Shown in pieces: positions 6,566 to 64,000 of a DNA stretch of 64,000 nucleotides. This DNA comes from Terriglobia bacterium (GTDB lineage: Bacteria > Acidobacteriota > Terriglobia > Terriglobales > Acidobacteriaceae): contig JAIQFC010000011.1 of NCBI GenBank assembly GCA_020073465.1, forward strand, positions 124,001 through 188,000, written 5' to 3'. Numbering within the stretch: position 1 is the first letter of the stretch; each line of letters starts with the position of its first letter. Made by a program: the position numbers and the translations under genes. The notes under the pieces were generated by a model. The model saw only the letters and a list, made by a program, of their open reading frames with translations. It did no database searches and was not told the origin of the DNA.

Positions 6566-6635
6566 CCGCCTCGCTGCGCTCGGCGGGACAGCCGAGGGCC
6601 TGCCCTGGGCTTGCCGAAGGGCGGCTGTCCCCACA
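6566..6635. repeat. Nested palindromic repeat (TGTGGGGACAGCCG type)
   Basis: On the minus strand the element starts TGTGGGGACAGCCGCCC and contains the inner module CTTCGGCAAGCCCAGGGCAGG. It continues CCCTCGGCTGTCCCG and ends in a GCCGAGC...GCGAGGCGG arm. The same architecture is found in frame inside lpxB at 63709-63781 and, without the inner module, inside the ABC exporter at 59456-59503. Here it lies in the spacer between the flotillin gene and the glycine-zipper gene. Confidence 0.75.
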
Positions 6636-6655
6636 CGAGCTGTCAGACCCCTCGC

Positions 6656-8095
6656 TCACTTCTTCGGCGAATCGCCCGGCTTCGGTGTCTTGTCGCCAAT
6701 CTGCCGCACCTTGCCCAGCAACTCCGACAACGGCATACCCGACAGCGTCTCGAACAGCGCCGGCACCTGCGCCGCCATCTTGGTGATGTCGCCGGTGATC
6801 TTGTTCATCCCGGAAGCATCGCCGTTTCCCGTCGAGACGATGGTGATCTTGTCGACGTTGGCCAGCGGACTGGCCAGCGCCCTTACCACCTCCGGCATGC
6901 TGCTGAACAGCCTGTCGATCACCGCCGCCTGGTTGTATTCCTGATAGGCCTCGGCTTTCACGTTCATGGCTTTGGCTTCCGATTCGCCTTTCTTGAAAAT
7001 GATCTCGGCCTCGGCCTCGCCCTGCGCGCGAATCGAAGAAGCATGCCCTTCCGCTTCCGCGATCAAACGCTGCTTCTCGGCCGCAGCGAGAGTCTCGATC
7101 CGCTGACGCTCGATCTCGGCTCCCTTCAGCACAGTTGCAATCAGTTCCTTCTCGCGGCGGTTGATTTCCGCTTCCTGCACTTTGACCTGCTGCTCCTTCT
7201 CCACCTGCTGCACCTTCACCTGTTCGGCCACCACCTGCTGCTGCATGATGTTGGTCTGGATGTCGTAAGCCTTGTCCGCCTGCGCCTGTTGACGTTTCGT
7301 AACCTCCAGGAATTGCGCTTTCTTCACTTCAAGATCGCGCTGCGATTCCGCCTGCTTGGCCAGTGACAGCGTCTCAGCCAGCACACGTTCTTGATCAGCT
7401 TGTGCCTTAGCTACGGCCGCTTCTCGCTGCGCCAGCGCCCGTTTGATCGCCGTGTCACGGTCGGCTTCCGCCGTGGCTACGTCGGCGTCGCGCTTGATGC
7501 GGGCCACATCGGGCTTGCCCATGTTGGTGATGTACTCGTTCTTGTCCCGCACTTCCTTGATGGTGAACGAGATCACCTCCAGGCCCATCTTGTTCATGTC
7601 TTCCGCGCAGGTGGACCGCATGCGGTCGGAAACCATCTCCGGCTGCTTGACGATCTCTTCCACGGTGAGCTGCCCGATGATGCCGCGCAGGTGGCCTTCC
7701 ATGACCAGCCGGATCAGGCCTTCCCGCTCCTGGTCGCTCTTGGTCAGGAACTGCTCGGCCGCGGTCAGCACGGATTCCCGGTCTGACTTCACCTTGATCT
7801 GCGCCACGGCTTCCACCGTCACCGCCACACCTTGCTTGGTGTAAAGGTCCTGCTGTGGCGCCACATCGAACGACATCAACTCCAACGAAAGATCCCGGCA
7901 AACCTGCACCATGGGAAACACCAGCGTGCCGTGGCCCTGCACGACGCGCGTCCCGCCCAAGCCATACACGATGAGTGCCTCGTGTGGTCCCGCTTTGCGA
8001 TATAGCCTGGCCATTCCGCTCATCAGGAACAGGATGACCATCACTCCCAGCCCGGCGAAAATCCAAATCGTTACCAAGTTCGACAACCCGAACAT
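6656..8095 (-). CDS. Flotillin-like SPFH/band-7 membrane protein (YqiK-type)
   Basis: 479 residues from the ATG at 8095, which has GGAGG about 6 nt upstream; a TTG 15 nt earlier would include the ribosome site. One N-terminal helix (about 3-27) is followed by an SPFH domain (KAGPHEALIVYGLGGTRVV through roughly residue 190). A long charged, Ala/Glu/Gln-rich coiled coil (about 200-390) comes next, then a conserved C-terminal region (AAVIDRLFSSMPEVVRALASPL). Flotillins scaffold membrane microdomains. In Escherichia coli, yqiK sits beside the NfeD-like gene yqiJ, and the same pairing is seen here. Confidence 0.94.
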   Translation of the reverse strand: MFGLSNLVTIWIFAGLGVMVILFLMSGMARLYRKAGPHEALIVYGLGGTRVVQGHGTLVFPMVQVCRDLSLELMSFDVAPQQDLYTKQGVAVTVEAVAQIKVKSDRESVLTAAEQFLTKSDQEREGLIRLVMEGHLRGIIGQLTVEEIVKQPEMVSDRMRSTCAEDMNKMGLEVISFTIKEVRDKNEYITNMGKPDVARIKRDADVATAEADRDTAIKRALAQREAAVAKAQADQERVLAETLSLAKQAESQRDLEVKKAQFLEVTKRQQAQADKAYDIQTNIMQQQVVAEQVKVQQVEKEQQVKVQEAEINRREKELIATVLKGAEIERQRIETLAAAEKQRLIAEAEGHASSIRAQGEAEAEIIFKKGESEAKAMNVKAEAYQEYNQAAVIDRLFSSMPEVVRALASPLANVDKITIVSTGNGDASGMNKITGDITKMAAQVPALFETLSGMPLSELLGKVRQIGDKTPKPGDSPKK

Positions 8096-8160
8096 AACGC
8101 CTCCTCCCAATCTCCCGGACGATCACTTCAACTGCTCAACAAACTCTTGCCGCCAGCAGG

Positions 8161-8868
8161 TCACGGCGTAGTGGAAGTCGTGCCTTGTTCCGCGGAATCC
8201 GGCTCTTCCCCCGACATCTCGCTCCACAGGCGAACGTAGGCAATTCCCTTCTCGTAGCGCGTAACCACTACTTCCGTTCCCTTGGCAATGGTGCTGCCGT
8301 CGTCGCTACGCGCGCCACAGACGCGCCGGGTTCCCGCCTGGGAATAAATGATCTCGCCGGTTCCACCCTTGCGTATGGGCATGGAGACTCGGCCCAGCAC
8401 TCCCACCATCTCGTAGTCGGCAGCGTCCATGTTCTCCTCGTGGGACATCAGCACCCTGCTCAGAAACAGGAACACGATACAGGCGCCGATCAGTCCCGCC
8501 GCGACCGCAAGCAGCAACCCAAAGCCAACCCAGATCGCGGAGAAGCGGGTGAGCAAATATCCGGTCCCACCAAACCAGGCCAGGAACGCCGTCAGACTGA
8601 CAAAATTGAACGGCGAAACTCCGTTGCCCGGCTGGGTATCAGTGCCGGCCCCCTCAGCGCCGACTCCGTGCACGCCAGGGGTGGCGTGTCCTGCTGCCAC
8701 CGGCCCGTGTGCGGCCGGCAGATGGGCGCCGCCGACATGCGCATGGAAATACGGCAGGTGCCAGTGCCCCATTTGTGCACTTCCCAGCAAGAACGATAGA
8801 AAACTGAAGCAGAAGCCGACCGCGAAACAGATCAAATAGAAGTCCGCCCAGGTCAACGAATGAGTCAT
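8161..8868 (-). CDS. NfeD/YqiJ-like membrane protein
   Basis: 235 residues. An N-terminal helix (about 8-30), a His/Gly/Ala-rich loop (about 35-75; many HxH pairs), and two or three more helices (about 88-135) come first. A C-terminal soluble beta-barrel of the NfeD/OB type follows, beginning YEMVGVLGRVSMPIRKGGTGEI and continuing TEVVVTRYEKGIAYVRLW. NfeD proteins partner flotillin/SPFH proteins. The ATG overlaps the upstream regulator stop by 4 nt, and the flotillin gene follows after 65 bp. The His-rich loop is unusual and could bind metal. Confidence 0.88.
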   Translation of the reverse strand: MTHSLTWADFYLICFAVGFCFSFLSFLLGSAQMGHWHLPYFHAHVGGAHLPAAHGPVAAGHATPGVHGVGAEGAGTDTQPGNGVSPFNFVSLTAFLAWFGGTGYLLTRFSAIWVGFGLLLAVAAGLIGACIVFLFLSRVLMSHEENMDAADYEMVGVLGRVSMPIRKGGTGEIIYSQAGTRRVCGARSDDGSTIAKGTEVVVTRYEKGIAYVRLWSEMSGEEPDSAEQGTTSTTP

Positions 8869-9389
8869 CGGATTCGCCTCCCTTCTGAAACAACCGGACG
8901 ACGCCGACTGCCGTTCGCCGTCAACTCTGGCCGCAGAGCCTCAAGCAGGCGATCGGCGAGTCCTGGCGTTTCAAGAATCGTGCCCAGAAGCAACAGACAG
9001 CGCCGCGTATTTTTCTCACGCGCACATTTCATCAGCACGTCGCTGACCTCCGTATCGCTGGCGAAACGCTCCGAGCCCTGCAACAGCCAGACATCGAGCT
9101 GCCCCTCGGTCGTGCGCAGGTCCGAGGTCAGCTCGGTGTGGTACCCCTCCGGATCATCCACAAGGAAGCCGGGATGCACTTTGAAAAACTTCGCCAGCAG
9201 CGCGCGCGACGACTGCGTCATGTGCGGCCGCGAGCCCCCCTCAATCTGCGACAGATACGACTGGCTAATGCTCTTGCCCAGTTCCTTGCGGACCGCACGC
9301 ACAATCTCCTGCTGCGTCATCGGCCGCCCCAGCCCGCGCAGCGAGCCTTCCACCTCGCGCAGGTAACGGATTTTCTCGCCCAGTTTCAT
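8865..9389 (-). CDS. XRE-type transcriptional regulator of the NfeD-flotillin-PspA operon
   Basis: 174 residues starting MKLGEKIRYLREVEG. The helix-turn-helix spans about residues 24-62 (MTQQEIVRAVRKELGKSIS...QSYLSQIEGGSRP), with the recognition helix at SQSYLSQIE. The C-terminal ~100 residues form a helical domain of unknown role. It is the first gene of a minus-strand operon: its stop overlaps the nfeD start. A palindrome lies inside its own promoter, so autorepression is the simplest inference. The leader is only about 10 nt if transcription starts where the promoter predicts. Confidence 0.88.
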   Translation of the reverse strand: MKLGEKIRYLREVEGSLRGLGRPMTQQEIVRAVRKELGKSISQSYLSQIEGGSRPHMTQSSRALLAKFFKVHPGFLVDDPEGYHTELTSDLRTTEGQLDVWLLQGSERFASDTEVSDVLMKCAREKNTRRCLLLLGTILETPGLADRLLEALRPELTANGSRRRPVVSEGRRIR

Positions 9390-9398
9390 ATCTCAAAT

Positions 9399-9449
9399 CG
9401 CCATATTTATATTGCAATTTGCAATGTTTGTCAAGAACTGTATATGGCG
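9399..9449. promoter_or_regulatory. Operator candidates: palindrome in the spacer plus flanking inverted repeat
   Basis: A perfect 7+1+7 palindrome ATTGCAATTTGCAAT occupies 9411-9425, that is, almost the whole -35/-10 spacer. A second inverted repeat, CGCCATAT (9399-9406) and ATATGGCG (9442-9449), brackets the promoter. Both fit a dimeric repressor; the adjacent XRE protein is the obvious candidate. Confidence 0.7.
9406..9434 (-). promoter_or_regulatory. Sigma-70 promoter of the XRE-nfeD-flotillin-pspA operon
   Basis: On the minus strand, TTGACA (9434-9429), a 17-bp spacer and TATAAA (9411-9406) give a near-consensus promoter. The XRE start codon at 9389 lies 17 bp downstream of the -10 box. 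Confidence 0.85.
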
Positions 9450-9502
9450 TATTTTGAACAGGTTATGGCTGCTCGCGGGGACGTAGGGCTGCTCGGGGAA
9501 AG

Positions 9503-9532
9503 AAAAACGCCCCCGGCTGGCCCGGGGGCGTT
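9503..9532 (-). terminator. Intrinsic terminator of the repeat-protein gene
   Basis: A perfect 11-bp GC-rich stem (9506-9516 with 9522-9532, loop CTGGC) is followed on the minus strand by TTTTTC. It lies 28 bp after the stop at 9561 and separates that gene from the XRE operon promoter. Confidence 0.88.
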
Positions 9533-9560
9533 GCTACGTCTCTCTCTTCCGTTTCGACCC

Positions 9561-10190
9561 TTACTGGTGCTTGTTGTTGTGCTTGGCGCGGTAAATCTGG
9601 CGGGATTCGCGGTTCTGCTCGCGGTTGACCTGCTGGCGTTCCTGCTGCGTCAGCTTGCCGCCATTCGCCTTCCGTTCGGCACGAACCTGCTGATTGATCC
9701 GCGCTTCGTTGCGCTCCAGGTGGGCCGCCTCTCCGGCGGTCACCTGTCCGCTCTTGACGCCTTGCGCGATGCGGTCCTGTTGGTTCTCGGCGCGCTTTCC
9801 GACCTCGCTCTTCGGGCTGGTGTTCTGCACGGCCCCGTTATGCTTGCCGGCATAGATCTGCTTGGACACCTGGTTCTGCTGCTGGGTCAAGGTAGCCTTG
9901 TCCACGGCAGTCAGCTTGCCATTGTCCAGCTTGCGCATGTCGCGCTCTTCCTGGTTGATGGCGTGTTCCTTCTTCTCCAGGTTCGTGGTCTCGCCGGCGG
10001 TAAGCTGGCCGCTGGCAACACCTTGGCCGATACGGTCCTGCTGGTTTTCCTTGCGCTCCTGAATGGTCTTGCCGGTAACCTGGCCGTTGGCCGGGGCTTG
10101 CGCGGGCGTATTGGTGCTCTGCGCGACGACTGGCAGGGCAAAGACAGCCAGAGCCGCGCTCAACAAGGTCAGCTTGATTTCGTTCTTCAT
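9561..10190 (-). CDS. Secreted protein with two tandem ~70-residue repeats
   Basis: 209 residues with a Sec signal peptide (MKNEIKLTLLSAALAVFALPVVAQ, cleavage likely after VAQ). The mature protein is Gln/Asn/Arg/Lys-rich and made of two copies of one unit. Copy 1 starts about residue 47 at KENQQDRIGQGVASGQLTAG and ends SKQIYAGKHN; copy 2 starts about 133 at AENQQDRIAQGVKSGQVTAG and ends SRQIYRAKHN. Each is predicted to be helical. It has a strong AGAGGAGAG ribosome site and its own terminator, so it is probably monocistronic and well expressed. I recognise the ENQQDRI repeat type as a hypothetical secreted family without known function. Confidence 0.85.
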   Translation of the reverse strand: MKNEIKLTLLSAALAVFALPVVAQSTNTPAQAPANGQVTGKTIQERKENQQDRIGQGVASGQLTAGETTNLEKKEHAINQEERDMRKLDNGKLTAVDKATLTQQQNQVSKQIYAGKHNGAVQNTSPKSEVGKRAENQQDRIAQGVKSGQVTAGEAAHLERNEARINQQVRAERKANGGKLTQQERQQVNREQNRESRQIYRAKHNNKHQ

Positions 10191-10401
10191 GGTGACTCTC
10201 TCCTCTGTTGCGCTGGTTTGAATCTCGGCGCGGCTTTGGCCGCTCGGGAGAAGAAACCCGCTCCGTCAAGAAATGTTTCGCGGGATCTAATCCCCTTGAT
10301 TTTCAGCTAGTTATGAAACCACGGGCGGACAAGGCTGTTGAGGTCACGAAAGGACAAGACCGATGCGGGGGAGAAGCCATCAAAGGGATCGGGCCAAGGG
10401 A

Positions 10402-11259
10402 CTATAGTCCCGCTTCGATGCGGGAGCGTGGGTCGAGATAGTCGCGCAGCGCGTCGCCGATGAAATTGAACGAGAGCACCGCCAGCATCACGGCCAGCGC
10501 CGGAAAAAGCACGAGATGGGGCGCGTCGAACAGGTGAGCACGGCCGTCGTTGAGCATCGTGCCCCAACTCGCCGTTGGCGGGGGGACACCGAGGCCAAGA
10601 AAGCTCATGGTGGCTTCGGCGAGGATCGCTCCGGCCATGCCGATTGCGGCCTGCACGATCACCGGCTGAATAATGTTGGGCAGAATGTGGCGGACGATGA
10701 TGCGCAGGTCGCTCGCGCCCAAGGCACGCGCGGCCTCGACAAACTCGCGCTCGCGGGCGGCCAGGACTTGTCCACGGACCAGGCGCGCGTAGCCGACCCA
10801 TCCGCCGAGCGAGAGAGCGAGCACAAGATTGAAAATGCCGGGGCCACGGAAGGCCACAAAGGCGATGGCCAGCAGTATTCCAGGAAAAGAAAGGAACGCA
10901 TTCATCAGGATCACGTTGACGAAGCGATCGATGCCTCCGCCGTAATAGCCGGCGATGGAGCCGATGATGAGGCCAAGCGCCAGCGAGGTCAGCACGACGC
11001 AGCTGCCGACCAGCATCGAGATGCGCGCGCCGTAGACGACGCGGGAGAGGATGTCACGGCCCAGTTCGTCGGTGCCGAACCAGTGCTCGTGGGATGGAAT
11101 GTCCAAGCGAGTAGGTAGATTGATAGCGGCGGGATCCTGCGGAGCAATCCAGGGCGCGAACAGGGCGAAGATGACAAAGACCACGACCAGCACGACGCCC
11201 GTCGCCGCCAGCGGATTGTGTCGTGCGGCGCGGCGGAACGAGATGGCGGCGGTGGACAT
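10402..11259 (-). CDS. ABC transporter permease, DppC/OppC type
   Basis: 285 residues, about six hydrophobic segments. It starts with a cytosolic leader then AATGVVLVVVFVIFALFAPW, the periplasmic patch HWFGTDELGRDILSR typical of DppC/OppC, and an EAA loop (EFVEAARALGASDLRIIVRHILPN). It ends DALRDYLDPRSRI, as in dipeptide/nickel permeases. It pairs with the DppB-type gene at 11370. No substrate-binding protein or ATPase gene is adjacent in the window, so the substrate (peptide, nickel, opine) cannot be stated. Confidence 0.92.
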   Translation of the reverse strand: MSTAAISFRRAARHNPLAATGVVLVVVFVIFALFAPWIAPQDPAAINLPTRLDIPSHEHWFGTDELGRDILSRVVYGARISMLVGSCVVLTSLALGLIIGSIAGYYGGGIDRFVNVILMNAFLSFPGILLAIAFVAFRGPGIFNLVLALSLGGWVGYARLVRGQVLAAREREFVEAARALGASDLRIIVRHILPNIIQPVIVQAAIGMAGAILAEATMSFLGLGVPPPTASWGTMLNDGRAHLFDAPHLVLFPALAVMLAVLSFNFIGDALRDYLDPRSRIEAGL

Positions 11260-11369
11260 AATCTAGTTCTAAGAAAACTGCGGGCGCACAACGTGCTTGG
11301 CCCGCCCGGTTCCCTTCCCTCTGGCGAACCAGGCAATACGCCGAGGGCGGAACATAGCTTTGTCTCGTG

Positions 11370-12245
<876 letters not shown>

Positions 12246-12279
12246 CGGCAGGGTGTAGAGGACGCGTTGGAGGACGGTC

Positions 12280-12327
12280 TTCAGTTCTCAGTTCTCAGTT
12301 CTCAGTTCTTAGTTCTCAAGTTCTTAG
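12280..12327. repeat. Heptad repeat (AGTTCTC) abutting the dppB-type start
   Basis: Six near-perfect copies of AGTTCTC/AGTTCTT in a row, ending at the natural N-terminus of the DppB-type permease. The same unit is at 1799-1828. On the minus strand every third frame of it contains TGA, so it closes the reading frame right before the permease. Confidence 0.85.
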
Positions 12328-12396
12328 ATAAAAACGACGCTATCGAATCCGTTGTGGTTCGCCGAAGCCCTAAAGCCGAAGCCTGGAGCCCGCCCT

Positions 12397-13785
12397 TCAG
12401 TCTCCCGCCTGCTTCGCGGACCCGGCTTTGGCCTCGACATTTTCGGTCTTTTCAATCTTCACCTTCGCGATACGGTGGCCTTCCAATTCTTCGACGGTGT
12501 AGCGGTGCGATTCATATTCGAAGGATTCGCCCAGGCTCGGGATCTTCTGCAATCGCGCCAGAATGAATCCGGCGAGCGTTTCAAAACCGGCGTCCCGCGG
12601 CAGGGCAAGCCCGTACTCGGCCTCCAGATCTCTAATATTTACGGACCCTTCCAATACGAGCGAAGACTCGTCTTCCAGCGCCGGTTCCGGCGGAGCCACA
12701 TCGAATTCATCTTCAATATTGCCCACCAACTGCTCGAGGATGTCCTCCACCGTAATCACCCCGGCGGTAGACCCGAACTCGTCGACGACGACGGCGAGGT
12801 GTCGGCGGCGCTCTTTGAACTCGGCCAACAGCTCCGCCAGCACCTTGGTTTCCGGCACGACCAGGACATCGTGCATGATCTGGCCAATCTGCATGCGCGT
12901 GATGCGCGTGGCGGTAGTCTGGCCCAGATTGCTAAGGCGGAGTCGCATCCAGCGCATGAGGTCCTTGTAGTAGAGCACGCCTACGATGTGCTCCGGCCCG
13001 CGCTGCGGATCGTAGACCGGTATACGGGAATGCTGGCCTTCGACGACCCGGACGAGGGCATCATCCAGGGTAAGGTCGGAAGGTAGCGAAAAAATATCTG
13101 GCCGCGCGACCATGACCGCGTTCACCCGCACGCTGTCGAGTTCGATGGCGTTGTGGATCATCTCCTCCTGAAACTCGGGAATCTGGCCGAACTGGCGGCT
13201 GGCGGTCACGATGAGTTTGAGCTCGTCCGGCGAGTGGACGGCTCCGCGGCGCCGCGAGTCCTGCGCCCCAAAAAGACGCAGGACGATGCCTCCGGAGCGG
13301 CGCATCACAAACAGAAATGGCCGGGTAATCGTCAGAAATGCTTCCATGGGCGCGGCGACGGCGAGGGCGATCTGTTCGGATCGCTGCAGGGCGAGAGTCT
13401 TGGGAACCAGTTCTCCCAGGATCACGTGCATGTACGTGATCAAGCTGAAGGCGATCGCGATCGCGATGCTGTGAGCGTAGACGGCGGCGTGGGGCACCTG
13501 GTGGACGAACTGGAACGATTCGACCAGACGGGCCACCATGGGTTCACCGATCCAACCCAAGGTCAGGCTGACCATGGTGATTCCAAGCTGGACGCCGTTA
13601 ACGACCTCGTCGAGGTGCTGATGCAGGCGCTGGACGATGCGGGCGCCGATGCGTCCCGACTCGATCAGTTGCTGAATGCGGGTGTCGCGCACGCTCACCA
13701 GCGAGAATTCGGCGGCCGCAAAGAAAGCGTTGGCCGCCACCAGGAGAAGGATCAGGAATACCCGGAGCAGCACAAAGGCGATCAT
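12397..13785 (-). CDS. CNNM/CorC-type membrane protein with CBS pair
   Basis: 462 residues. An N-terminal DUF21/CNNM transmembrane domain (about 1-180; VAANAFFAAAEFSLVSVRDTR, LGELVPKTLALQRSEQ) is followed by two CBS domains (about 205-335; VMVARPDIFSLP, HLAVVVDEFGSTAGVITVEDIL). A CorC_HlyC domain ends the protein (about 350-440; RDLEAEYGLALP, RYTVEELEGHRIAKVKIEK). Proteins of this type export magnesium/cobalt or sense Mg-ATP; older annotations call them hemolysins. A second family member lies at 37705. Confidence 0.93.
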   Translation of the reverse strand: MIAFVLLRVFLILLLVAANAFFAAAEFSLVSVRDTRIQQLIESGRIGARIVQRLHQHLDEVVNGVQLGITMVSLTLGWIGEPMVARLVESFQFVHQVPHAAVYAHSIAIAIAFSLITYMHVILGELVPKTLALQRSEQIALAVAAPMEAFLTITRPFLFVMRRSGGIVLRLFGAQDSRRRGAVHSPDELKLIVTASRQFGQIPEFQEEMIHNAIELDSVRVNAVMVARPDIFSLPSDLTLDDALVRVVEGQHSRIPVYDPQRGPEHIVGVLYYKDLMRWMRLRLSNLGQTTATRITRMQIGQIMHDVLVVPETKVLAELLAEFKERRRHLAVVVDEFGSTAGVITVEDILEQLVGNIEDEFDVAPPEPALEDESSLVLEGSVNIRDLEAEYGLALPRDAGFETLAGFILARLQKIPSLGESFEYESHRYTVEELEGHRIAKVKIEKTENVEAKAGSAKQAGD

Positions 13786-15348: not shown

Positions 15349-15364
15349 GAGAACCCCGGTCTTA

Positions 15365-15415: not shown

Positions 15416-15435
15416 GCCGCATTGGTGACGGTCCC

Positions 15436-17632: not shown

Positions 17633-17637
17633 GGAAA

Positions 17638-20946: not shown

Positions 20947-21041
20947 CAACCACCAAGGACATGAAGGTCTTAGTGTCTTGGGTCTTCCTTCGTGTAGCGG
21001 AGCCTGCCCTGAGCAAAGCCGAAGGGTGCCCTTGGTGGTTA
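20947..21041. repeat. Nested repeat with AACCACCAAGG termini
   Basis: Inverted termini AACCACCAAGG (about 20949-20959) and CCTTGGTGGTT (about 21030-21040) enclose a GGTCTTAG-type stretch. They also enclose one copy of the inner module CCTGCCCTGAGCAAAGCCGA (21003-21022, continuing AGGG). The same inner module occurs inside different outer repeats at 6599-6621, 56686-56710 and 63724-63746. Confidence 0.7.
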
Positions 21042-52385: not shown

Positions 52386-52470
52386 CAGCCCGTCAGGGCG
52401 GCATTCATCAGCCCAGGGCGTAAGCCCTGGGTGAGAACGAGATTCGAGCGAGTCCCGAAGGAACGGCACT
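52386..52470. repeat. REP-like element with GTAA tetraloop hairpin
   Basis: GCCC-GTCA-GGGC (about 52388-52399) is followed by a perfect 8-bp stem 52412-52431: CCCAGGGC, loop GTAA, GCCCTGGG. GAGTCCCGAAGGAACGGCAC comes next. The layout and the GNRA loop match 5039-5058. It sits between meaB and mce. Confidence 0.75.
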
Positions 52471-56604: not shown

Positions 56605-56675
56605 ACCATCACCTTCCGTGTCGCCAATGCCCTTCGTTGCGAATTATAACTCCGCTGCGGCGACTAGTTCTCAGT

Positions 56676-56722
56676 GTGGCGCGGACCTGCCCTGAACGAG
56701 AGTCGAAGGGGCCCTCGCCCGC
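56676..56722. repeat. Nested repeat (TGTGGCGCGG...CCCGCGAA) with inner module
   Basis: Outer arms TGTGGCGCGGA and CCCTCGCCCGCGAA flank the inner module CCTGCCCTGAACGAGAGTCG (56686-56705, continuing AAGGG). The same outer arms without the inner module form the hairpin at 60241-60268 inside the ABC exporter gene. Confidence 0.65.
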
Positions 56723-56751
56723 GAAATGCAGCCCCCAGACTGCGATCTTGT

Positions 56752-57939
56752 TCACACCGGAACGTCAACCGGCGAAATCAGCCGCTGAAACACTTCGTTG
56801 GAAAGCAATCTTCCTCGGACCGTCAGACGGATTACAGTGCCGCACCTCTCCAGCAGCCCACCTTCGACAAATTCCGCAATCGTCGCTTGATGTCGGTTCA
56901 CTGCTTCGTCTCCAAACCATGCCGCAATTTCAGACAAATCAACGCCCGCAGTCCGTCTCAACCCAAGAAAGAAGCTCTCCTCCAAAGCCGCGTTCCGCGA
57001 CACCGGCGCCCGCTGCAGGGGCGCCCCCGCGACATACTGCTCCAGCGAGTCCGGAGTCGCGAATCGCACCGCCTCGGCATCCGACTCAGCAGAGAAAAGC
57101 ATCGAATGCGCATCCACCCCAAACCCCATATACGGCTGTCGCGTCCAGTACTTCACATTGTGCCGCGACTCGAATCCACGCCGCGCAAAGTTGGAGATCT
57201 CATATTGCGCAATTCCTGCTGACTCCAGTCTTGCGCACGCCGCTACATAGAAATCAGCCATAGCCTCTTCATCCGGGACAAAGTGCGCGTGATAACGAGT
57301 CCCGCCCGCAATCAGTTCCCTCCCCAACCGCGAGTCCTCATCCACCTCCAGCATGTACACGCTGACATGGGGAACGCCAGCCGCAACAGTTTCAGCCAAC
57401 GATATCTCCCAGCTCTCGGCTGTCTGGTGCGGCAGCCCTGCAATCAGGTCAATGTTGATATTTGTAATCCCAGCAGCACGCAACCGCGCAATGTCATCCA
57501 GCACTGTCTCGCGCTTGTGCAGGCGCCCCACCGCTGCTGCCTCCGTGTCGACGAACGACTGCACGCCCAGACTCACCCGGTTCACGCCACCGCGCAGCAA
57601 TCCATCAATGATCCCTGGCGTGAGCGTTCCCGGTGCACATTCCACCGTGACCTCCACCCCGGCCGCCACGCCGAACTGCGCCCGCACCGCATCAAAGATG
57701 CGCGCCAACTGCCCCGGCTCAAGCACGGTAGGAGTTCCGCCACCCAGGTAGACCGAATCCACTTCGTGTTCGATCCGCCCACCCATCTCCTCCACAGTCC
57801 GGTGTGAACCCGCGATATCCGCGCACACCCTCTCGACATAGCGCTCGAACACGGCTTTCGAGAACACATCGGAAGCGAAGTTGCAGTAGCTGCACTTGGT
57901 GCGGCAGAACGGCACCGAGATGTAGACGCCCAACGGCAC
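56752..57939 (-). CDS. hemW: HemW-like radical SAM protein (heme chaperone)
   Basis: 395 residues from a GTG at 57939 (GAGG just upstream), giving the normal start PLGVYISVPFC. The frame is open to 57975, but those 12 codons lie in a MITE terminus. Radical SAM cluster Cys12, Cys16, Cys19 (PFCRTKCSYCNF), glycine-rich SVYLGGGTPTVLEP, LIAGLPHQTAESWE, and a C-terminal HemN_C domain. Often annotated as oxygen-independent coproporphyrinogen oxidase. The C-x3-C-x2-C-N-F motif fits HemW, which inserts heme into respiratory proteins. Confidence 0.92.
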   Translation of the reverse strand: MPLGVYISVPFCRTKCSYCNFASDVFSKAVFERYVERVCADIAGSHRTVEEMGGRIEHEVDSVYLGGGTPTVLEPGQLARIFDAVRAQFGVAAGVEVTVECAPGTLTPGIIDGLLRGGVNRVSLGVQSFVDTEAAAVGRLHKRETVLDDIARLRAAGITNINIDLIAGLPHQTAESWEISLAETVAAGVPHVSVYMLEVDEDSRLGRELIAGGTRYHAHFVPDEEAMADFYVAACARLESAGIAQYEISNFARRGFESRHNVKYWTRQPYMGFGVDAHSMLFSAESDAEAVRFATPDSLEQYVAGAPLQRAPVSRNAALEESFFLGLRRTAGVDLSEIAAWFGDEAVNRHQATIAEFVEGGLLERCGTVIRLTVRGRLLSNEVFQRLISPVDVPV

Positions 57940-57959
57940 AGCCTCGATTATCCCACCTG

Positions 57960-58130
57960 TGTGTGGGGCAGACACTCCTGTCCGCCGCCATTGACGTAGA
58001 TTTCTTCCTTGACGTGCTGATTCAGGTCCGCCGGTTCGCCACAGTTAGGTCACTGGAATAGGCAGTTGCTTTCCCGAGCTTCGAGAACGTCAACTTCAAG
58101 AGCGGCGGACAGGAGTGTCCGCCCCACACA
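57960..58130. mobile_element. MITE-like element 2, 171 bp, 29-bp terminal inverted repeats
   Basis: Terminal repeats 57960-57988 and 58102-58130 are inverted copies with one mismatch, starting TGTGTGGGGC(A/G)GACACTCC. Each contains the hairpin GGCGGACA, CTCC, TGTCCGCC (left arm with one A). Related to element 1 in both termini and in subterminal TTGACGTAGATTTCTT and GTCAACTTCAA, but 30 bp longer and different inside. Lies between the divergent hemW and ABC exporter genes. Confidence 0.8.
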
Positions 58131-58234
58131 AGAACCTGAACCTTTTCCATCCTGCCTGCTGTCTCCACCATCTATTTGAGGTACTCTTTTACAGTGCTCG
58201 GCGGCTTCCTCCTGTCCGGCACCTTTAGCGACCG

Positions 58235-60319
58235 ATGGCCCAGGAAGAAGAAGTACTCGGCAAAGCCTACGACAGCCGCCTGATGCGGCGTCTGCTCACT
58301 TACCTGCGCCCCTACCGCTGGCAGGTGGCGATCGCCATCGTGTCGATCGTTCTCAAGTCTTTCTGCGACGTGCTCGGCCCCTATCTCACCAAAGTCGCCA
58401 TTGACCGCTATCTCGCACCTTCGGGCGGCACAACCGCCGGCGTCTGGAGTTGGCTTAGCCCGCGCCCGCTCACCGGCATTGCCCAGATTGCCGCCATCTA
58501 CGTCGGCCTGCTGCTCTCCACTTTTCTGTTCGAGTTCCTCCAGACCTACTACATGCAGTGGACCGGCCAGAAAGTCATGTTCGACCTGCGCAGCCAGATC
58601 TTCCGCCACCTGCAGCGCATGCACATCGCCTTCTACGACAAGAACCCCGTCGGACGCCTGGTCACGCGCGTCACCACCGACGTCGACGCCCTCAACGAAA
58701 TGTTCACCTCCGGCGTGGTCTCGATCTTCGAAGACCTGTTCGTGCTCGCTGGCATCGTCGGCATCATGCTTTGCATGAACTGGAAGCTGGCGCTGATCAC
58801 CTTCGCCGTGCTCCCCCTGATCGTCTACTCGACCAAGATTTTCCGCGACAAAGTCCGCGACTCCTATCGGCGCATCCGCACCGCCATCGCCCGCATCAAT
58901 GCCTACCTGCAGGAGCACGTCAGCGGCATGGTCGTGCTGCAACTCTTTAACCGCGAGCGCAAAGCTTATGACCGCTTCTCCGAAATCAACCGCAGCCACA
59001 TGGACGCGTTCAAAGACGCGATCATGGCCTACTCCCTTTACTATCCCGCCGTTGAAATCTTCTCGTCGATCGCGATTGCCAGCGTGATCTGGTGGGGTGG
59101 CAAGGGCGTGATCAGCGGCATCTCTGTGGGAAGCATCGCGCTTGAGTTCAACCCGCGCTCGCTCATCGCCTTCCATGTAGTAACCGCAGCCGCCTCGCTC
59201 GGTGTTCTGGTCGCCTTCATGCAGTACGCCCAGCGCTTCTTCCGGCCCATCATGGACTTCAGCGAGAAGTACAACATCCTGCAGTCCGCGATGGCCGCCG
59301 CCGAGCGCATCTTCAAGCTGCTGGATACCCCGGCGGAAGTCGTGTCGCCCGAAGTTACGAAGATGCCGGATGGCCCCGGCCGCATCGATTTCGACCACGT
59401 CTGGTTCGCCTACCGTGATGTGGCGGTGGAAAAGGAACATGTAGGCACGAGTGCCCATGTGGGGACGGCCGCCCCCGGCCGTCCGGCCGAGCAAAGCTCG
59501 GCTGGCTCTTCCTCCGGCAACGGCCATGCAGCCGTCCCCGACTCCACCTCTGACTGGGTGCTCCGCGACGCGACCTTCACCATCGCCCCCGGAGAAACTG
59601 CCGCCATCGTCGGCCACACCGGCGCCGGCAAGACCACGCTGATCTCCTTGCTCCTCCGCTTCTACGACGTCCAGAAAGGCGCCGTGCGCATCGACGGCGT
59701 CGACGTCCGCGACATGGACCTAGCCGAGCTCCGCCGCCGCTTTGGCGTAGTCTTACAAGACCCGTTCCTGTTCACCGGCACCATCGCCGGCAACATCCGT
59801 CTCGGCACTGAGCGCATTGAGGACGAGCACATTGAGAAAGCCGCCGAAGACGTCAACCTCGCCGACTTCATCCGCGCCCTCCCCAACGGCTTCAACGAAG
59901 AAGTCCGCGAGCGCGGATCAACGCTCTCCACCGGACAGAAGCAGCTCATCTCTTTCGCCCGCGCCCTGGCTCATAATCCCAAGATCCTGATCCTCGACGA
60001 AGCCACCTCCAGCGTGGACACGGAGACGGAATTCAAGGTTCGCGATGCCCTCAGCCGTATGGTCGAAGGACGCACCTCGCTGATCATCGCCCACCGCCTC
60101 TCCACCGTGCAGCGCGCCGACAAGATCATCGTCATGCACAAAGGCCAGGTCCGCGAAATGGGTACCCACCAGGAGTTGCTCGCTCAGCGCGGCATCTACT
60201 ACAAGCTGTACGAGCTGCAATACAAAGATCAGGAGATGAATGTGGCGCGGGTACCCTCACCCGCGAACGGCTCTGGAGGATATGGCCAGCCCGAAGTCAC
60301 CGCACGCGGCGATGACTAG
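58235..60319 (+). CDS. ABC exporter, fused permease and ATPase (MsbA/MDR type)
   Basis: 694 residues. Six-helix transmembrane domain (about 20-330) starting SRLMRRLLTYLRPYRWQVAIAIVS. Nucleotide-binding domain with Walker A GHTGAGKTT (460-468), Q loop LQDPFLFTGTI, signature LSTGQKQ (564-570; the usual SGGQ has ST in place of SG) and Walker B ILDEATSS (Asp588, Glu589). Between the two, residues about 403-434 (VGTSAHVGTAAPGRPAEQSS and on) are an in-frame insertion of a palindromic repeat. The tail (about 670-680) also comes from a repeat hairpin. Exports lipid or drug; substrate unknown. Confidence 0.93.
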   Translation: MAQEEEVLGKAYDSRLMRRLLTYLRPYRWQVAIAIVSIVLKSFCDVLGPYLTKVAIDRYLAPSGGTTAGVWSWLSPRPLTGIAQIAAIYVGLLLSTFLFEFLQTYYMQWTGQKVMFDLRSQIFRHLQRMHIAFYDKNPVGRLVTRVTTDVDALNEMFTSGVVSIFEDLFVLAGIVGIMLCMNWKLALITFAVLPLIVYSTKIFRDKVRDSYRRIRTAIARINAYLQEHVSGMVVLQLFNRERKAYDRFSEINRSHMDAFKDAIMAYSLYYPAVEIFSSIAIASVIWWGGKGVISGISVGSIALEFNPRSLIAFHVVTAAASLGVLVAFMQYAQRFFRPIMDFSEKYNILQSAMAAAERIFKLLDTPAEVVSPEVTKMPDGPGRIDFDHVWFAYRDVAVEKEHVGTSAHVGTAAPGRPAEQSSAGSSSGNGHAAVPDSTSDWVLRDATFTIAPGETAAIVGHTGAGKTTLISLLLRFYDVQKGAVRIDGVDVRDMDLAELRRRFGVVLQDPFLFTGTIAGNIRLGTERIEDEHIEKAAEDVNLADFIRALPNGFNEEVRERGSTLSTGQKQLISFARALAHNPKILILDEATSSVDTETEFKVRDALSRMVEGRTSLIIAHRLSTVQRADKIIVMHKGQVREMGTHQELLAQRGIYYKLYELQYKDQEMNVARVPSPANGSGGYGQPEVTARGDD
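59456..59503. repeat. In-frame palindromic repeat inside the ABC exporter gene
   Basis: TGTGGGGACGGCCGCCCC... with stem GGACGGCCG / CGGCCGTCC (59463-59471, 59476-59484) and stem GCCGAGC / GCTCGGC (59486-59492, 59496-59502). About 48 nt, in frame. It has the outer parts of the 63709-63781 element without its inner module. Confidence 0.8.
60241..60268. repeat. In-frame hairpin repeat at the exporter C-terminus
   Basis: TGTGGCGCGGGT ... ACCCGCGAA with a perfect 7-bp stem (CGCGGGT 60246-60252, ACCCGCG 60259-60265). Encodes part of the exporter tail. Outer arms match 56676-56722. Confidence 0.65.
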
Positions 60320-60559
60320 AAGGCTGCCCCTGGTTGGACGCACCCTCTCTCAGGAGATTGAGACGCTGGTCAAAACAACCGGGATCCCGAAAAGCCGTTA
60401 GGCATCAATTCAAAGCCTCTCCCTTCCTGCAAGCCTCCCGGCGTAGAAAAATCGTTTTTCTTAAGCCGGATATGGGGAACTACTTCCCCTCTCCTGCCGT
60501 ATCTGGGAGTACCATTAGGTCCGCAACCGCGTAAGGAGGCTGCCTCTCCCGCAACCCAC

Positions 60560-63465
60560 ATGAAAATCCAAGAACGAACTTCCCTGCTCTGCTCGCTCCT
60601 GAGCCTGGCCATGTGTTGCCTGGTATGGATGTGCGCCACGGCCGTGACCGCTCAAGACAAAGCTAAACCGCAGGACAGCACTCCCAAGTACCGCAATCCT
60701 AATCTCGCCATCGAAGACCGCGTCGCCGACTTGCTCTCCCGCATGACGCTCGAAGAAAAGGTCCAGCAGATCACCGGTGGCTGGGAATCTCAGGCAGAAG
60801 TCATCGATCCCACCGGCACCTACACCACAGAATCTGCGCGCGCCGTCCTGAGCCGCTGGTGGGATCCCGACACCCCATTCCCGCCTCGTAAAGCTGCAAT
60901 CCTGCGCAACGGCGTGCAGCGCTTTCTCAAAGAAAAGACCCGCCTCGGCATCCCCGCCCTGTTCATGGGCGAAGCCCTCCACGGATTCATGGAATACGGC
61001 AGCACCAGCTTCCCGCAGGCCCTGGGCCTCGCCAGCACATGGGACCCGGAACTGGTCCATCAGGTATTTACCGCCGCGGGTGACGAAGCCGGAGCGAGCG
61101 GCGCAGGCCAGGTTTTCAGCCCCGTTCTCGATATCGCCCGCGATCCGCGCTGGGGACGCACCGAAGAGACTTATGGCGAAGATCCGTTTCTAGCCTCGCG
61201 CATCGGCGTGGCCGCGATCACGGGCCTACAGGGAGATTCTTTCTTCATCAACCGTCATCACGTCATGGCTACCGCCAAGCACTTTGCTGTGCATGGCCAG
61301 CCCGAAGGCGGCACCAACACTGCGCCCGGCAACTATTCCGAACGCATCATTCGCGAGAACTTTCTCGTGCCGTTCCAGGCCGCGGTCGAGGAAGCCAGAG
61401 TCGGCAGCGTGATGGCTTCCTACAACGAGATCGACGGCATCCCGTCGCACGTCAATCCCTGGCTGCTCGGACGCGTGCTGCGCCAGGAGTGGGGATTCCG
61501 CGGCTACGTCACCTCCGATGGCGAGGGCCTGCAGATGCTGGTACAGACCCATCATGTCGCCGCCAACAAGCTCGATGCCGCAAAGCTGGCGATCGCTGCC
61601 GGAGTGGATTACGACCTCTCCGACGGTTCGGTGTATCGGACGCTGCTTGCCCAGGTGAAACAAGGAAGCGTTCCAGAGAGCGAAGTCGACCGCGCCGTTG
61701 CCCGCGTGCTGGCAACCAAGTTCCGGCTCGGCCTCTTCGACAATCCCTATGTCGATCCCGATTACGCCGAGAAGACCACCAACAGCGCAGAACACCGCCA
61801 GCTTGCCTTGAAAGCGGCGCAGGAAACGATGGTCCTGCTGAAGAACGATAAGAACCTGCTCCCTCTCGATCTGACCAAGCTCAAGACCATCGCCGTAATC
61901 GGTCCTAACGCAGACCAGCTTCACCTCGGCGGTTACAGCCGCGGTCCCTCTCACTCCGTGCCGATTCTGCAAGGCATTCGCGACCGCGTTGGCGACAAGG
62001 CAAAGGTCGTCTACGCAGAGGGCTGTCGCTTCACTGCCGGCAAGCAGGATTGGCATGGCTGGTTTGAGGACAACGTTCAGCTGGTTGACCCCAAAACCCA
62101 GGTGGACAAAATCAAGGAGGCGGTGGAAACCGCTAAGAACGCAGACGTCGCCATTCTCGTGGTCGGGGAAAATGAAGCCACCAATCGCGAAGCCTGGTCG
62201 GAAAGCCACCTCGGCGATCGCGACTCTCTCGACCTTCTCGGCGCGCAGAACGATCTGGTAAAAGCCGTGGTCGAGACCGGCACGCCCACCGTCGTCCTTC
62301 TCATCAACGGCCGCCCGCTGTCCATCAACTACATCGCCGAGCACGTCCCGCGATTCTTGAGGGCTGGTATCTCGGCCAGGAAGGTGGCACCGCAGCCGCT
62401 AACGTTCTGTTCGGCGACATGAATCCCGGCGGGAAGCTGCCCATCACATTCCCACACTCGGTCGGGGACCTGCCCGACTTCTACAATCACAAACCGTCGG
62501 CCAACCGCAGCTATGCGTTCAGCACCAGGAAGCCGCTGTTCCCCTTCGGCTACGGACTCAGCTACACCACATTCCGCTTTGACAACCTCCGTGTCGAACC
62601 AACGCAAATCCAGGTGGGCGGAACCGCCAAGGTCAGCGTCGACGTGACCAACACCGGATCGCGCGAAGGCGACGAAGTCCCGCAGTTGTATATTCATCAA
62701 AAAATCGCTTCGGTGACGCGTCCCGTCATACAACTGAAAGGCTTCCAGCGCACCACGCTGAAAGCTGGCGAAAAGAAGACAGTTGAGTTCACTATCACCC
62801 CCGACACGCTATCGATGCTCAACCTCGAGCTGCACCGCGTCGTCGAGCCTGGCATCTTCGAAATCATGGTTGGGCCCAGCTCCGACCAGACCAGCACCGT
62901 CTCACTCGCGGCTGTTGGCACTCATGGCGAGACTGGACTGCCGCCCCTGCCTCCGCCCCCGGCGGGATCTGAGTCGGGCGTGGTCAGTACTTTCGACGAT
63001 ATGAAGCCCTCGGCCAACTTCGGCTCGTGGATCGTTGTCACCGACGCCGAAAATGGCGGCAAATCCACCGGATCCATGCAGGTGGTGGAAGCGGGCGCGA
63101 ACAATTCGAAGGGAGCAATGCGGATGACCGGCGAAGTCGTTGTCGGCGGCCCGTTTCCTTTCTCCGGAGTAATGTTTGTCCCCGGCTCATCGCCGATGGA
63201 TTCCGTCAATCTCTCCGGCAAGAAGACCATCTCGTTCTGGGCAAAAGGGGACGGCAAGAACTATGCCGTGGCCCTCCTCACCGAAAGCAACGCGGGCGGA
63301 ATGCCGGCGATCCAGCCCTTCCTGGCTGGCCCCGAATGGAAGCAGTGCTCGTTTGACATATCTTCCTTCCAGACCACCGGCACCGAGATCAGAGGACTGA
63401 TTTTCGCCCGTGGCCAGGAACCCGGGAAATTTGAATTCGAACTCGATCAGGTGGAAATCAAGTAA
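60560..63465 (+). pseudogene. Secreted GH3 beta-glucosidase/xylosidase with single-base frameshift and CIA30-like C-terminal domain
   Basis: Part 1 (60560-62422) has a signal peptide (about 1-35), the GH3 N domain with nucleophile Asp320 (GYVTSDGEGLQ) and most of GH3 C up to INGRPLSINYIAEHVP. It then reads out of frame to a TGA. Part 2 (62419-63465) begins MNPGGKLPITFPHSVGDLPD and carries the end of GH3 C, the FN3-like domain and a CIA30/CBM11-like jelly roll (about FDDMKPSANFGSWIVVTDAENG to FELDQVEIK). Adding one G near 62350 restores EHVPAILEGWYLGQEGGTAA, the GH3 consensus. The corrected protein would have ~968 residues. Confidence 0.9.
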
Positions 63466-63484
63466 TTCGGTAGGCTGACGTTGT

Positions 63485-63516
63485 GCGAGGGAGCGGCATT
63501 TACAATGCTCCCTTGC
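63485..63516. other. Hairpin between the GH3 gene and lpxB
   Basis: Stem 63485-63494 (GCGAGGGAGC) with 63507-63516 (GCTCCCTTGC), one mismatch, 12-nt loop. No U-tract follows, so its role as a terminator is uncertain. Confidence 0.5.
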
Positions 63517-63617
63517 GCATACTCATCTCAGCCGGTGAAGTTGAGGCGCCCAGCGGGCGTGAGGGCAGCGGGAGCCCGCTGCCGAAATCCCGAGCACCGC
63601 GAGGGACCTCACAGTGA
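63513..63617 (+). pseudogene. Duplicated 5' end of lpxB with palindromic insert
   Basis: A TTG at 63513 starts R-I-L-I-S-A-G-E, nearly identical to the lpxB N-terminus R-V-L-I-S-A-G-E 101 nt further on (about 20 of 27 bases match). It continues into GREGSGSPLPKSRAPRGTSQ and stops at a TGA that overlaps the lpxB GTG. Between the copies lies CAGCGGGC ... GCCCGCTG, an 8-bp palindrome. It looks like a partial duplication of the start of lpxB around a repeat insertion. Confidence 0.6.
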
Positions 63618-64000
63618 GAGTTCTCATTTCAGCGGGTGAAGCCTCAGGCGAAATGTACGGCGCCCAGCTCATCGAAGCGCTGCACCGCCACGAAACCAAC
63701 ACTGCCCGTGTGGGGACAGCCGCCCCTTCGGCCAGCTCAGGGCAGGCCCCCGTCTGTCCGGCCGACTCGGAGAGTCGGCTCGCTTTCTTCGGCGTCGGTG
63801 GCGACCGCATGCGCACCGCCGGCTGCGACACGGTCGTCGACGCCAAGGATCTCGCAGTTGTCGGCATCACCGAGATCCTCAGCCACCTCCCGAAGATCTA
63901 CAGCCTCTACCGCCACCTGATCAAAGCAGCTGACAAACGCAAGCCCAACCTCGCCATCGTCATCGACTCCCCCGCCTTCAACTGGCGCGTCGCCCGCCAG
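63614..64000 (+). CDS. lpxB: Lipid-A-disaccharide synthase, 5' part
   Basis: From a GTG at 63614: VRVLISAGEASGEMYGAQLIEALHRH..., then FFGVGGDRMRTAGCDTVVDAKDLAVVGITEILSHLPKIY and IVIDSPAFNWRVARQ at the window edge. These are the conserved LpxB blocks (AGExSGD-like, GVGGxxM, VMG-like, IDxPxFN). A 24-residue insertion (about VGTAAPSASSGQAPVC and on) separates the first helix from the GVGG strand and is encoded by a palindromic repeat. Joins two UDP-diacylglucosamine derivatives in lipid A synthesis; lpxD is elsewhere in the window. Confidence 0.93.
   Translation, partial: MRVLISAGEASGEMYGAQLIEALHRHETNTARVGTAAPSASSGQAPVCPADSESRLAFFGVGGDRMRTAGCDTVVDAKDLAVVGITEILSHLPKIYSLYRHLIKAADKRKPNLAIVIDSPAFNWRVARQ
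63709..63781. repeat. In-frame nested repeat inside lpxB
   Basis: TGTGGGGACAGCCGCCCC, inner module CTTCGGCCAGCTCAGGGCAG, then GTCTGTCCGGCCGA and a perfect stem GCCGACTC / GAGTCGGC (63761-63768, 63772-63779). About 72 nt, a multiple of three, so the frame is kept. Same structure as 6566-6635 (other strand). Confidence 0.85.

What the first reader, a model, noticed from the sequence alone, without database searches (positions are those of the whole stretch)
6566..63781. Nested, modular palindromic repeats: one inner module inside several different outer hairpins
A ~24-nt module (CCTGCCCTG-n-GCCGAAGGG and variants) occurs at 6599-6621, 21003-21026, 56686-56710 and 63724-63746. The outer sequence differs: TGTGGGGACAGCCGCCC...CGGCTGTCC (6566, 63709), AACCACCAAGG...CCTTGGTGGTT (20947) and TGTGGCGCGG...CCCGCGAA (56676). 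Two outer hairpins exist without the inner module (59456 and 60241), which look like 'empty sites'. That pattern suggests a very small unit that inserts into the loops of other repeats. No enzyme for this is in the window.
Basis: partly seen in the sequence, partly recalled or inferred. Interest (0 to 1): 0.72.

Follow-up and report, generated by a model that had tools for sequence, protein, structure and literature searches.

The report
Tiny DNA insert inside bacterial hairpins
A 24-25 letter piece of DNA has been inserted, exactly and repeatedly, into the loops of many unrelated hairpin repeats in a soil bacterium, and near-identical pieces occur in many bacterial phyla, which makes it one of the smallest candidate mobile DNA elements and a good subject for asking how such things move.

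Summary
The four inner modules are at the stated places (0 expected). The genome (5.91 Mb, probably a Sulfotelmatobacter-like acidobacterium) holds 98; the reversed pattern 0. For 53 of 98, removing 23-26 nt recreates a near-identical empty repeat elsewhere in the fetched genome; controls 1 of 98 and 1 of 98. The hosts are about 13 outer types, six of them related. In two genes, filled and empty orthologues differ by exactly 24 nt, in frame (lpxB 58/34, msbA 53/29). Rfam's Acido-Lenti-1 carries the module in either of its two hairpin loops. Outer hairpins flank Y1 transposase genes; the module flanks none of 17 read, and three module-rich genomes show no Y1 match, so its mover is unknown. The core occurs in loci from 18 named phyla, a few in tandem heptamers or in itself. 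Closest known: cyanobacterial small dispersed repeats (recalled). All 15 copies of one subtype sit in outer B, so some composites spread as units.

The parts
6599..6621 (+). inner module (23-nt core, TTG loop type), inside outer A
   Evidence: exact pattern match; outer A without it elsewhere in the genome, 35/36 junction bases
6568..6635 (-). outer A element (GTGGGGACAGCCG..CGGCTGTCC plus second hairpin), filled
   Evidence: read; 47 exact tags in the genome
21003..21026 (+). inner module inside an AACCACCAAGG..CCTTGGTGGTT repeat
   Evidence: exact pattern match; no precise empty counterpart found
20948..21040 (.). outer repeat AACCACCAAGG...CCTTGGTGGTT
   Evidence: read
56686..56710 (+). inner module (25-nt core, GAGAG loop type), inside outer B
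   Evidence: exact pattern match; empty B counterpart 31/36
56675..56723 (+). outer B element (TGTGGCGCGG..CCCGCG), filled; GTGG/GTAG-tagged REP type
   Evidence: read; the same family flanks a REP-associated tyrosine transposase gene on both sides elsewhere in the genome
59458..59502 (+). outer A element without the module, in frame in the msbA-like gene (linker between the two ABC domains)
60241..60265 (+). outer B element without the module, in frame at the 3' end of the msbA-like gene; the orthologue in G002 carries a 24-nt insert here
63724..63746 (-). inner module in frame in lpxB, inside outer A
   Evidence: exact pattern match; orthologues L181 and L185 have the outer element without it, 58 against 34 nt
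63709..63780 (+). outer A element (two hairpins), filled, in frame in lpxB
   Evidence: LpxB by Pfam
58235..60319 (+). msbA-like ABC transporter gene that carries two in-frame outer elements
63614..64000 (+). start of lpxB (runs on beyond the window)
5013..5058 (-). Acido-Lenti-1 (RF01687) copy without the module; the family is host to it elsewhere
52387..52431 (-). Acido-Lenti-1 (RF01687) copy without the module

Best explanation
The inner module is a discrete mobile unit, typically AGCCTGCCCTGAGC-loop-G(T/C)CGAAGG (24-25 nt), that is inserted without a target duplication, its GAAGG end against a G of the target, most often in or next to the loop of an existing hairpin. Shown: exact insertion, no target duplication, many host types, loop preference, presence/absence between orthologues, occurrence in many phyla. 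Also shown: one subtype spread together with outer B. Inferred: loops are chosen because hairpins expose single-stranded DNA, and a nicking-and-joining enzyme that acts on single strands (of the HUH/Y1 kind, or another not yet named) puts the unit in; the module carries no gene and must be moved in trans. Outer B and the GGGTGCCCC hairpin (F) look like ordinary REP/TIR elements of the Y1 transposases of this genome.
For: 98 copies against 0 for the reversed pattern. 53 of 98 have an empty counterpart, itself free of the module, with 31 or more of 36 junction bases identical in the fetched part of the genome, against 1 of 98 random and 1 of 98 displaced places, both at 31; at 32 or more it is 43 of 98 against 0 of 196. 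The inferred insert is 24-25 nt in 48 of the 53, and 25 nt for 32 of 38 copies with a 24-nt core. Two neighbouring breakpoints in one host family (GCGAAG^GATCT and GCGAA^GGATCT) and two different loops of Acido-Lenti-1 (loop 1 in L041 and L073, loop 2 in L007 and L028) mean separate events. Orthologues differ by exactly 24 nt: lpxB 58 against 34 (G000 filled; L181, L185 empty), msbA 53 against 29 (G002 filled; G000, L153, L157 empty). Flanks are complementary more often than re-paired flanks: own genome 30 of 98 against mean 10.7, maximum 19; other taxa 11 of 81 against 1.8, maximum 5, and tandem-repeat continuity 3 of 81 against 0.14, maximum 1. In other taxa 80 of 86 copies are followed by G (in the own genome the search pattern forced this G). 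Self-nested copies: 5 distinct.
Against: No mover identified: none of the 17 Y1 loci read has free-standing copies on its two sides (within 250 nt). 3 of the 22 surveyed genomes with 4 or more copies show no PF01797 match (G096 with 10 copies listed with 0; G175 with 18 and G304 with 7 inferred from their absence in the list of positives). All 15 copies of the 25-nt subtype sit in outer B and none among the 78 copies outside B, so part of the copy number comes from composites copied whole. 45 of 98 have no strict empty counterpart in the part of the genome fetched. With the looser threshold the within-genome test is not clean (87 of 98 against 13 of 49 and 15 of 49). The module folds weakly on its own (z +0.5). 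No insertion was seen to happen.
Confidence: 0.77

Rival explanations
1. Composite amplification: the module entered each outer family once, long ago, and REP transposases then copied the filled repeats whole. The module itself is not mobile now.
For: All 15 copies of the 25-nt subtype are in outer B; 3 of the 4 filled Acido-Lenti-1 loop-1 copies share the CCTGCC loop. Outer B has a plausible mover.
Against: About 13 outer types at the strict threshold, six of them with a single strict filled copy; two breakpoints within one family; two loops of one Rfam family; orthologous sites that differ by the 24 nt alone; same core in other phyla inside other repeats.
Confidence: 0.3
2. Replication slippage or template switching between hairpins, using short homologies such as GAAG and GG, copies the module from one repeat into another. 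No enzyme is dedicated to it.
For: Insertion ends carry 1-2 nt of ambiguity and the unit ends in GAAGG, similar to the GAAGG of some targets. Hairpins stall replication (established knowledge). Some module-rich genomes show no Y1 match.
Against: The ends are the same in targets without GAAG, such as CCCAC^GGCG (Acido-Lenti-1 loop) or GGACA^GGAGTG, and in heptamer arrays of other phyla; template switching would be expected to give more variable lengths.
Confidence: 0.2
3. The inner module is a REP in the strict sense, moved by a resident RAYT like the outer repeats.
For: 18 Y1 matches in the genome; the two tested reach the NCBIfam RAYT cut-off. Y1 matches are somewhat commoner in genomes with 4 or more copies, 19 of 22 against 239 of 374 (Fisher p 0.037, not corrected for kinship).
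Against: No GTAG or CGTC tag in the listed flanks; no Y1 gene with it on both sides; three module-rich genomes without a PF01797 match.
Confidence: 0.2
4. Chance, or selection for a protein-binding site that arises again and again in loops.
For: The core is similar across phyla, as a binding site might be.
Against: 0 expected in the window; 449 against 7 control matches in 396 genomes; presence/absence differs by exactly 24 nt, which point mutation cannot give.
Confidence: 0.02

Closest known systems
Small dispersed repeats (SDR) of cyanobacteria (Elhai et al. 2008, Genome Res. 18:1484; content recalled, the paper is not held; cited in passages seen)
   Same: Size 21-27 nt, many copies, found inside other repeats including tandem heptamers and inside copies of themselves, inferred to be mobile, no mover known.
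   Different: Reported (recalled) as essentially confined to a subgroup of cyanobacteria; the module here is in loci from 18 named phyla, sits mainly in hairpins, and has orthologous filled/empty sites in protein genes. Whether its sequence equals one of the SDR families could not be checked.
REP elements inserted in target palindromes (Di Nocera et al. 2013, PMC3733652; sections 6, 7 and 15 read, passages of 16)
   Same: GTAG and CGTC REPs lie inside larger palindromes in A. variabilis, T. roseum and H. neapolitanus; CGTC REPs have no known transposase; REPs occur inside genes.
   Different: There each case is one REP type in one palindrome type. Here one small unit enters many types, and it bears neither tag. 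Outer B here fits the GTAG type and the GTCAT... repeats the CGTC type.
REPIN/RAYT and TnpAREP systems (PMC3116915, PMC8266576, PMC6006769; passages seen)
   Same: Short palindromes without genes, thought to be moved in trans by a Y1 enzyme on single strands; outer B and the GGGTGCCCC hairpin flank Y1 genes here. In-frame REP insertions in tnpAREP genes are in print (PMC6006769).
   Different: The inner module flanks no Y1 gene read here, has no GTAG tag and was not seen as inverted doublets.
Rickettsia palindromic elements (RPE; as described in PMC3733652)
   Same: Insertion of palindromic repeats in protein genes with the frame kept.
   Different: Different sequence and phylum; here outer A recurs at one codon of lpxB in both orientations in 20 of 28 sequences.
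Acido-Lenti-1 RNA (RF01687; table row seen in Weinberg et al. 2010, PMC2864571)
   Same: It is one of the outer families here.
   Different: Listed as an RNA candidate; here it has at least 111 matches at E 0.001 in one genome, two of them near Y1 genes, as a REP-like repeat would.

Membership tests
SDR (small dispersed repeats) | 21-27 nt, many dispersed copies | tested here: met
   inferred insert 24-25 nt in 48 of 53 strict cases, 23-26 in all 53; 98 copies
SDR (small dispersed repeats) | embedded in other repeats, including tandem heptamers | tested here: met
   about 13 outer types in this genome; heptamer continuity in 3 of 81 copies of other taxa, control mean 0.14
SDR (small dispersed repeats) | nested in copies of themselves | tested here: met
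   5 distinct self-nested copies, 1 in genome contigs and 4 in viral contigs; 0 in the window's genome stretches, the congener loci and the phylum loci
SDR (small dispersed repeats) | common secondary structure with compensatory changes | tested here: inconclusive
   in other taxa 14 and 17 of 21 non-CC cores pair at the first two flanking positions against about 6 by shuffling; in the own genome 4 and 4 of 16, as by chance; weak fold
SDR (small dispersed repeats) | restricted to a subgroup of cyanobacteria | tested here: not met
   80 loci with 18 named phyla, 8 loci in Cyanobacteriota
SDR (small dispersed repeats) | sequence identity to a published SDR family | not testable with these tools
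   paper not held
REP (GTAG/CGTC tagged), inner module | GTAG or CGTC tetranucleotide at the foot of the stem | tested here: not met
   no shared tag in the flanks of the 98 copies; most begin AGCC or GGCC, in outer B ACC; other taxa
REP (GTAG/CGTC tagged), inner module | flanks a tyrosine transposase gene | tested here: not met
   0 of 17 Y1 loci have free-standing copies on both sides within 250 nt; copies near Y1 genes sit inside outer hairpins
REP (GTAG tagged), outer B | GTAG/GTGG tag and inverted copies on both sides of a RAYT gene | tested here: met
   L118: GTAG-tagged hairpin upstream and inverted GTGG-tagged copy downstream of a gene that reaches the NCBIfam REP_Tyr_transpos cut-off, 80.6 against 80 bits
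MITE | terminal inverted repeats and target duplication | tested here: not met
   filled and empty sites show the insert alone, no duplicated target beyond 1-2 nt of ambiguity in most cases

The most novel reading that the evidence does not exclude
One family of gene-less units of 24-25 nt, with the core TGCCCTGAGC-NNN-GTCGAAGG, is mobile throughout bacteria: it jumps into hairpin loops and tandem repeats by an enzyme that is neither the host's RAYT nor any known transposase, spreads between phyla, and is tolerated in genes because the 24-nt form keeps the reading frame. It would be among the smallest and most widespread mobile DNA known.
Probability: 0.3. Interest if true: 0.88.

Novelty: new variant of a known kind. 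Interest (0 to 1): 0.64.

Why it matters
It gives a clean, testable case for a question open since the cyanobacterial SDRs: how can a unit of about 24 nt with no gene move? Exact filled and empty sites, a target rule (in front of a G, in hairpin loops), a frame-neutral length and occurrence in many phyla, cultured species among them, make it possible to look for new insertions and for the enzyme. It also suggests that the Rfam family Acido-Lenti-1 is a transposase-associated repeat rather than an sRNA, and shows repeated gain or loss and inversion of an outer repeat at one codon of a lipid A synthesis gene.

Tried and rejected
Fixed-length 24-nt pattern with mismatches in the window alone: not significant (2 matches, 8 of 100 shuffles reach 2); the variable-gap pattern was needed. 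Inverted-repeat score of the flanks alone: only 30 of 98 copies score 6 or more, because many hosts pair imperfectly; the filled/empty comparison replaced it. The permissive form of that comparison (87 of 98) was rejected as evidence, since controls gave 13 of 49 and 15 of 49. My first strict count was 54 of 98; one of these (L058) matched the end of the module itself, so I repeated the search with counterparts barred from lying in a module (53 of 98) and enlarged the controls (1 of 98 random, 1 of 98 displaced; 0 and 0 of 49). Y1 gene as the mover of the module: association weak and with exceptions. Ten Y1 regions of eight other genomes, two of them without the module: a module copy in one (L406, about 0.7 kb from the Y1 match, one side only); a different core in L414; nothing in the other eight. 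Only the Y1 places printed could be chosen. Rfam: no family matches the inner module itself in the window or in eight loci. Searches of the held library for six forms of the sequence and six translated peptides found 0 papers; that is no proof of absence in print. Tree of lpxB: 12 of 25 inner branches are drawn open, so counts of change are rough. Two of 29 lpxB loci (L172, L180) gave no N-terminal motif and were dropped before the count of 28; orientation states were read by eye. In one search one msbA row (L168) was mis-anchored, L156 is cut off and L169 lacks the region.
Full report
The window is G000:C64:124001-188000 of a 5.91-Mb genome in 67 contigs. Its genus is not named by the tools. 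One congener (G001) carries two module copies at the same contig positions as a record titled Acidobacteriaceae bacterium SbA1, which I recall as Candidatus Sulfotelmatobacter kueseliae; the genus name is therefore an inference.

CHECK. In the genome there are 98, against 0 for the reversed pattern. The outer tag GTGGGGACRGCCG has 47 copies against 1. All 98 copies were fetched with flanks and listed. They sit in many different sequences: A (GGACAGCCG/CGGCTGTCC), B (TGTGGCGCGG/CCCGCG), several CGTC-type repeats (GTCATCCTGAGCG...GCGAAGGATCT and kin), Acido-Lenti-1, and other hairpins.

FILLED AND EMPTY. For each copy I removed 19-29 nt round the module in all registers and looked in the fetched sequence (0.75 Mb, overlaps included) for an uninterrupted counterpart. 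With 31 or more of 36 junction bases identical, and the counterpart not itself in a module, 53 of 98 have one; 1 of 98 random places and 1 of 98 places displaced from the module in the same loci do, both with 31. With 32 or more it is 43 of 98 against 0 of 196. At a looser level the figures are 87 of 98 against 13 of 49 and 15 of 49, which I do not use. The inferred insert is 24-25 nt in 48 of 53, 23-26 in all; it is 25 nt in 32 of 38 copies with a 24-nt core, and 24 nt in 7 of 12 with a 23-nt core. Examples: GCGAAG[AGCCTGCCCTGAGCGAAGTCGAAGG]GATCTCGCG against GCGAAGGATCTCGCG; CCCAC[AG...GAAGG]GGCG against CCCACGGCG; CGCGAA[AG...GAAGG]GCGGC against CGCGAAGCGGC. No target duplication appears beyond 1-2 nt of ambiguity. 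Two neighbouring breakpoints occur in one host family, GCGAAG^GATCT and GCGAA^GGATCT. By eye the 53 fall in about 13 outer types, six of them related repeats that begin (C/T)GTCAT; six types have a single strict filled copy.

ORTHOLOGUES. In lpxB (Pfam LpxB) an outer A-type element lies in frame at the same place in 20 of 28 sequences examined (this genome and 27 congeners; 2 further loci dropped): 7 in the window's orientation, 11 inverted, 2 with both, 8 without (read by eye). On an lpxB tree this needs 8 changes of presence, 11 for all states, with many weak branches; starred branches force at least 4 for the group without it. Only the window's genome has the intact module there: 58 nt against 34 in L181 and L185; L189 has what looks like a decayed copy. 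At the 3' end of msbA, G002 has 53 nt where G000, L153 and L157 have 29, the extra 24 nt adding LRQAQGKL; G005 (L166) has a diverged segment of the same length in the same place, which I cannot assign.

INDEPENDENT MODEL. Rfam's Acido-Lenti-1 (RF01687, two hairpins, 46 nt) has 111 matches at E 0.001 in this genome (only 150 of 1416 candidates were scored, so a lower bound) and none in 14 control genomes. In L041 (below the gathering score) and L073 a match of 70 nt carries the module in the first loop; in L007 and L028 in the second. A model built by others thus sees the module as an extra in a loop. Two other filled loci (L052, L060) were not matched over the module.

OUTER REPEATS AND TRANSPOSASES. 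PF01797 has 18 matches in the genome, two of them pieces of one gene. I read 17 loci (three redone). Outer B flanks the gene at L118 on both sides, inverted, with GTAG/GTGG tags; that protein reaches the NCBIfam REP_Tyr_transpos cut-off (80.6 against 80 bits). A GGGTGCCCC hairpin flanks L040 on both sides. The Y1 gene at L053 (103.6 bits) ends in a hairpin that holds the module, while its paralogue at L116 ends in the same hairpin without it (35/36). Acido-Lenti-1 matches lie within 150 nt of two other Y1 matches (C23:284728; C49:2702, below the gathering score). None of the 17 genes has free-standing modules on both sides within 250 nt. So these outer repeats look like ordinary REP/TIR elements and the module is a passenger in them.

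WIDER DISTRIBUTION. Of 25 genomes of the genus (own included), 23 have 1-98 copies; of 16 outside it, 1 has a single copy. With the core TGCCCTGAGCN{2,6}CGAAGG, 57 of 396 Acidobacteriota genomes have 449 copies, against 7 for the reversed pattern (sums by hand). I estimate roughly 7 chance matches for this pattern in 257 billion bases, and bins may be mis-sorted, so phyla with one locus are uncertain; isolates of cyanobacteria and Bacteroidota are among the loci. The viral collection has 57 stretches. In other taxa the unit begins GCC or GCT in 57 of 86 and is followed by G in 80 of 86. After removing 24 nt, 11 of 81 have stems (re-paired mean 1.8, maximum 5) and 3 of 81 continue a tandem heptamer (mean 0.14, maximum 1). 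Five distinct copies are nested in another copy, none of them in this genus. The stem is weak: 4 bp. In other taxa cores with other closing pairs still pair, 14 and 17 of 21 against about 6; in this genome's stretches the 16 such cores show nothing.

MECHANISM. I favour insertion of a single-stranded unit into exposed loops by an enzyme acting in trans. Insertion without duplication and into hairpin loops fits the HUH/Y1 way of working (known for IS200/IS605 and TnpAREP; passages of PMC8266576). But Y1 matches are only somewhat more frequent in genomes with 4 or more copies (19 of 22 against 239 of 374, Fisher p 0.037, kinship not corrected), and G096, G175 and G304 have 10, 18 and 7 copies and no PF01797 match; G175 and G304 are counted so because they are absent from the list of positives. 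The enzyme may be lost, or another. Against pure mobility: all 15 copies of the 25-nt subtype are among the 20 in outer B, none among the 78 outside it, so B with its insert spread as a composite.

COMPARISON. The closest kind is the cyanobacterial SDR (recalled). The module meets size, copy number, embedding and self-nesting, fails the restriction to cyanobacteria, and is inconclusive on structure. It is not a tagged REP. Nesting of REPs in palindromes is in print (PMC3733652, section 7). I therefore call it a new variant of a known kind: much wider in taxa, with a loop preference, exact orthologous pairs and transposase-associated hosts. I found no paper with the sequence or its peptides in the held library.

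MENDED ON CHECKING. The strict count fell from 54 to 53 and the controls rose from 0 of 98 to 2 of 196; the number of outer types from about 16 to about 13; the phylum count was recounted as 18 names. None of this changes my odds.

Noticed in passing
window 5013-5058 and 52387-52431; at least 111 matches genome-wide: Rfam Acido-Lenti-1 (RF01687) behaves like a REP-type repeat: many copies in one genome, two near Y1 transposase matches, host to the inner module in either loop. Its label as sRNA looks doubtful.
   Followed up: partly
window 63709-63780 (lpxB) and loci L171-L199: One outer element occupies the same place of lpxB in 20 of 28 sequences, in both orientations, with the frame kept; presence changes several times on the tree.
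   Followed up: partly
window 59458-59502 (msbA linker); L160, L161, L164, L165: The linker between the two MsbA domains holds the outer A element in the window's orientation in several congeners, inverted in G004 and G016, and lacks it in G001 and G013.
   Followed up: partly
L399 (viral contig IMGVR_UViG_3300020198_000066): Several module copies nested one in another on one environmental contig that carries many copies; one looks nested more than once.
   Followed up: no
L285 (Anaerolineales contig, start): Head-to-tail array of a 22-nt form of the module (CTGCCCTGAGCGAAGTCGAAGG), at least three units.
   Followed up: no
L053 and L116: Two paralogous Y1 transposase genes (one tested as RAYT) whose 3' hairpins differ by the module: a filled/empty pair next to transposase genes.
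   Followed up: yes
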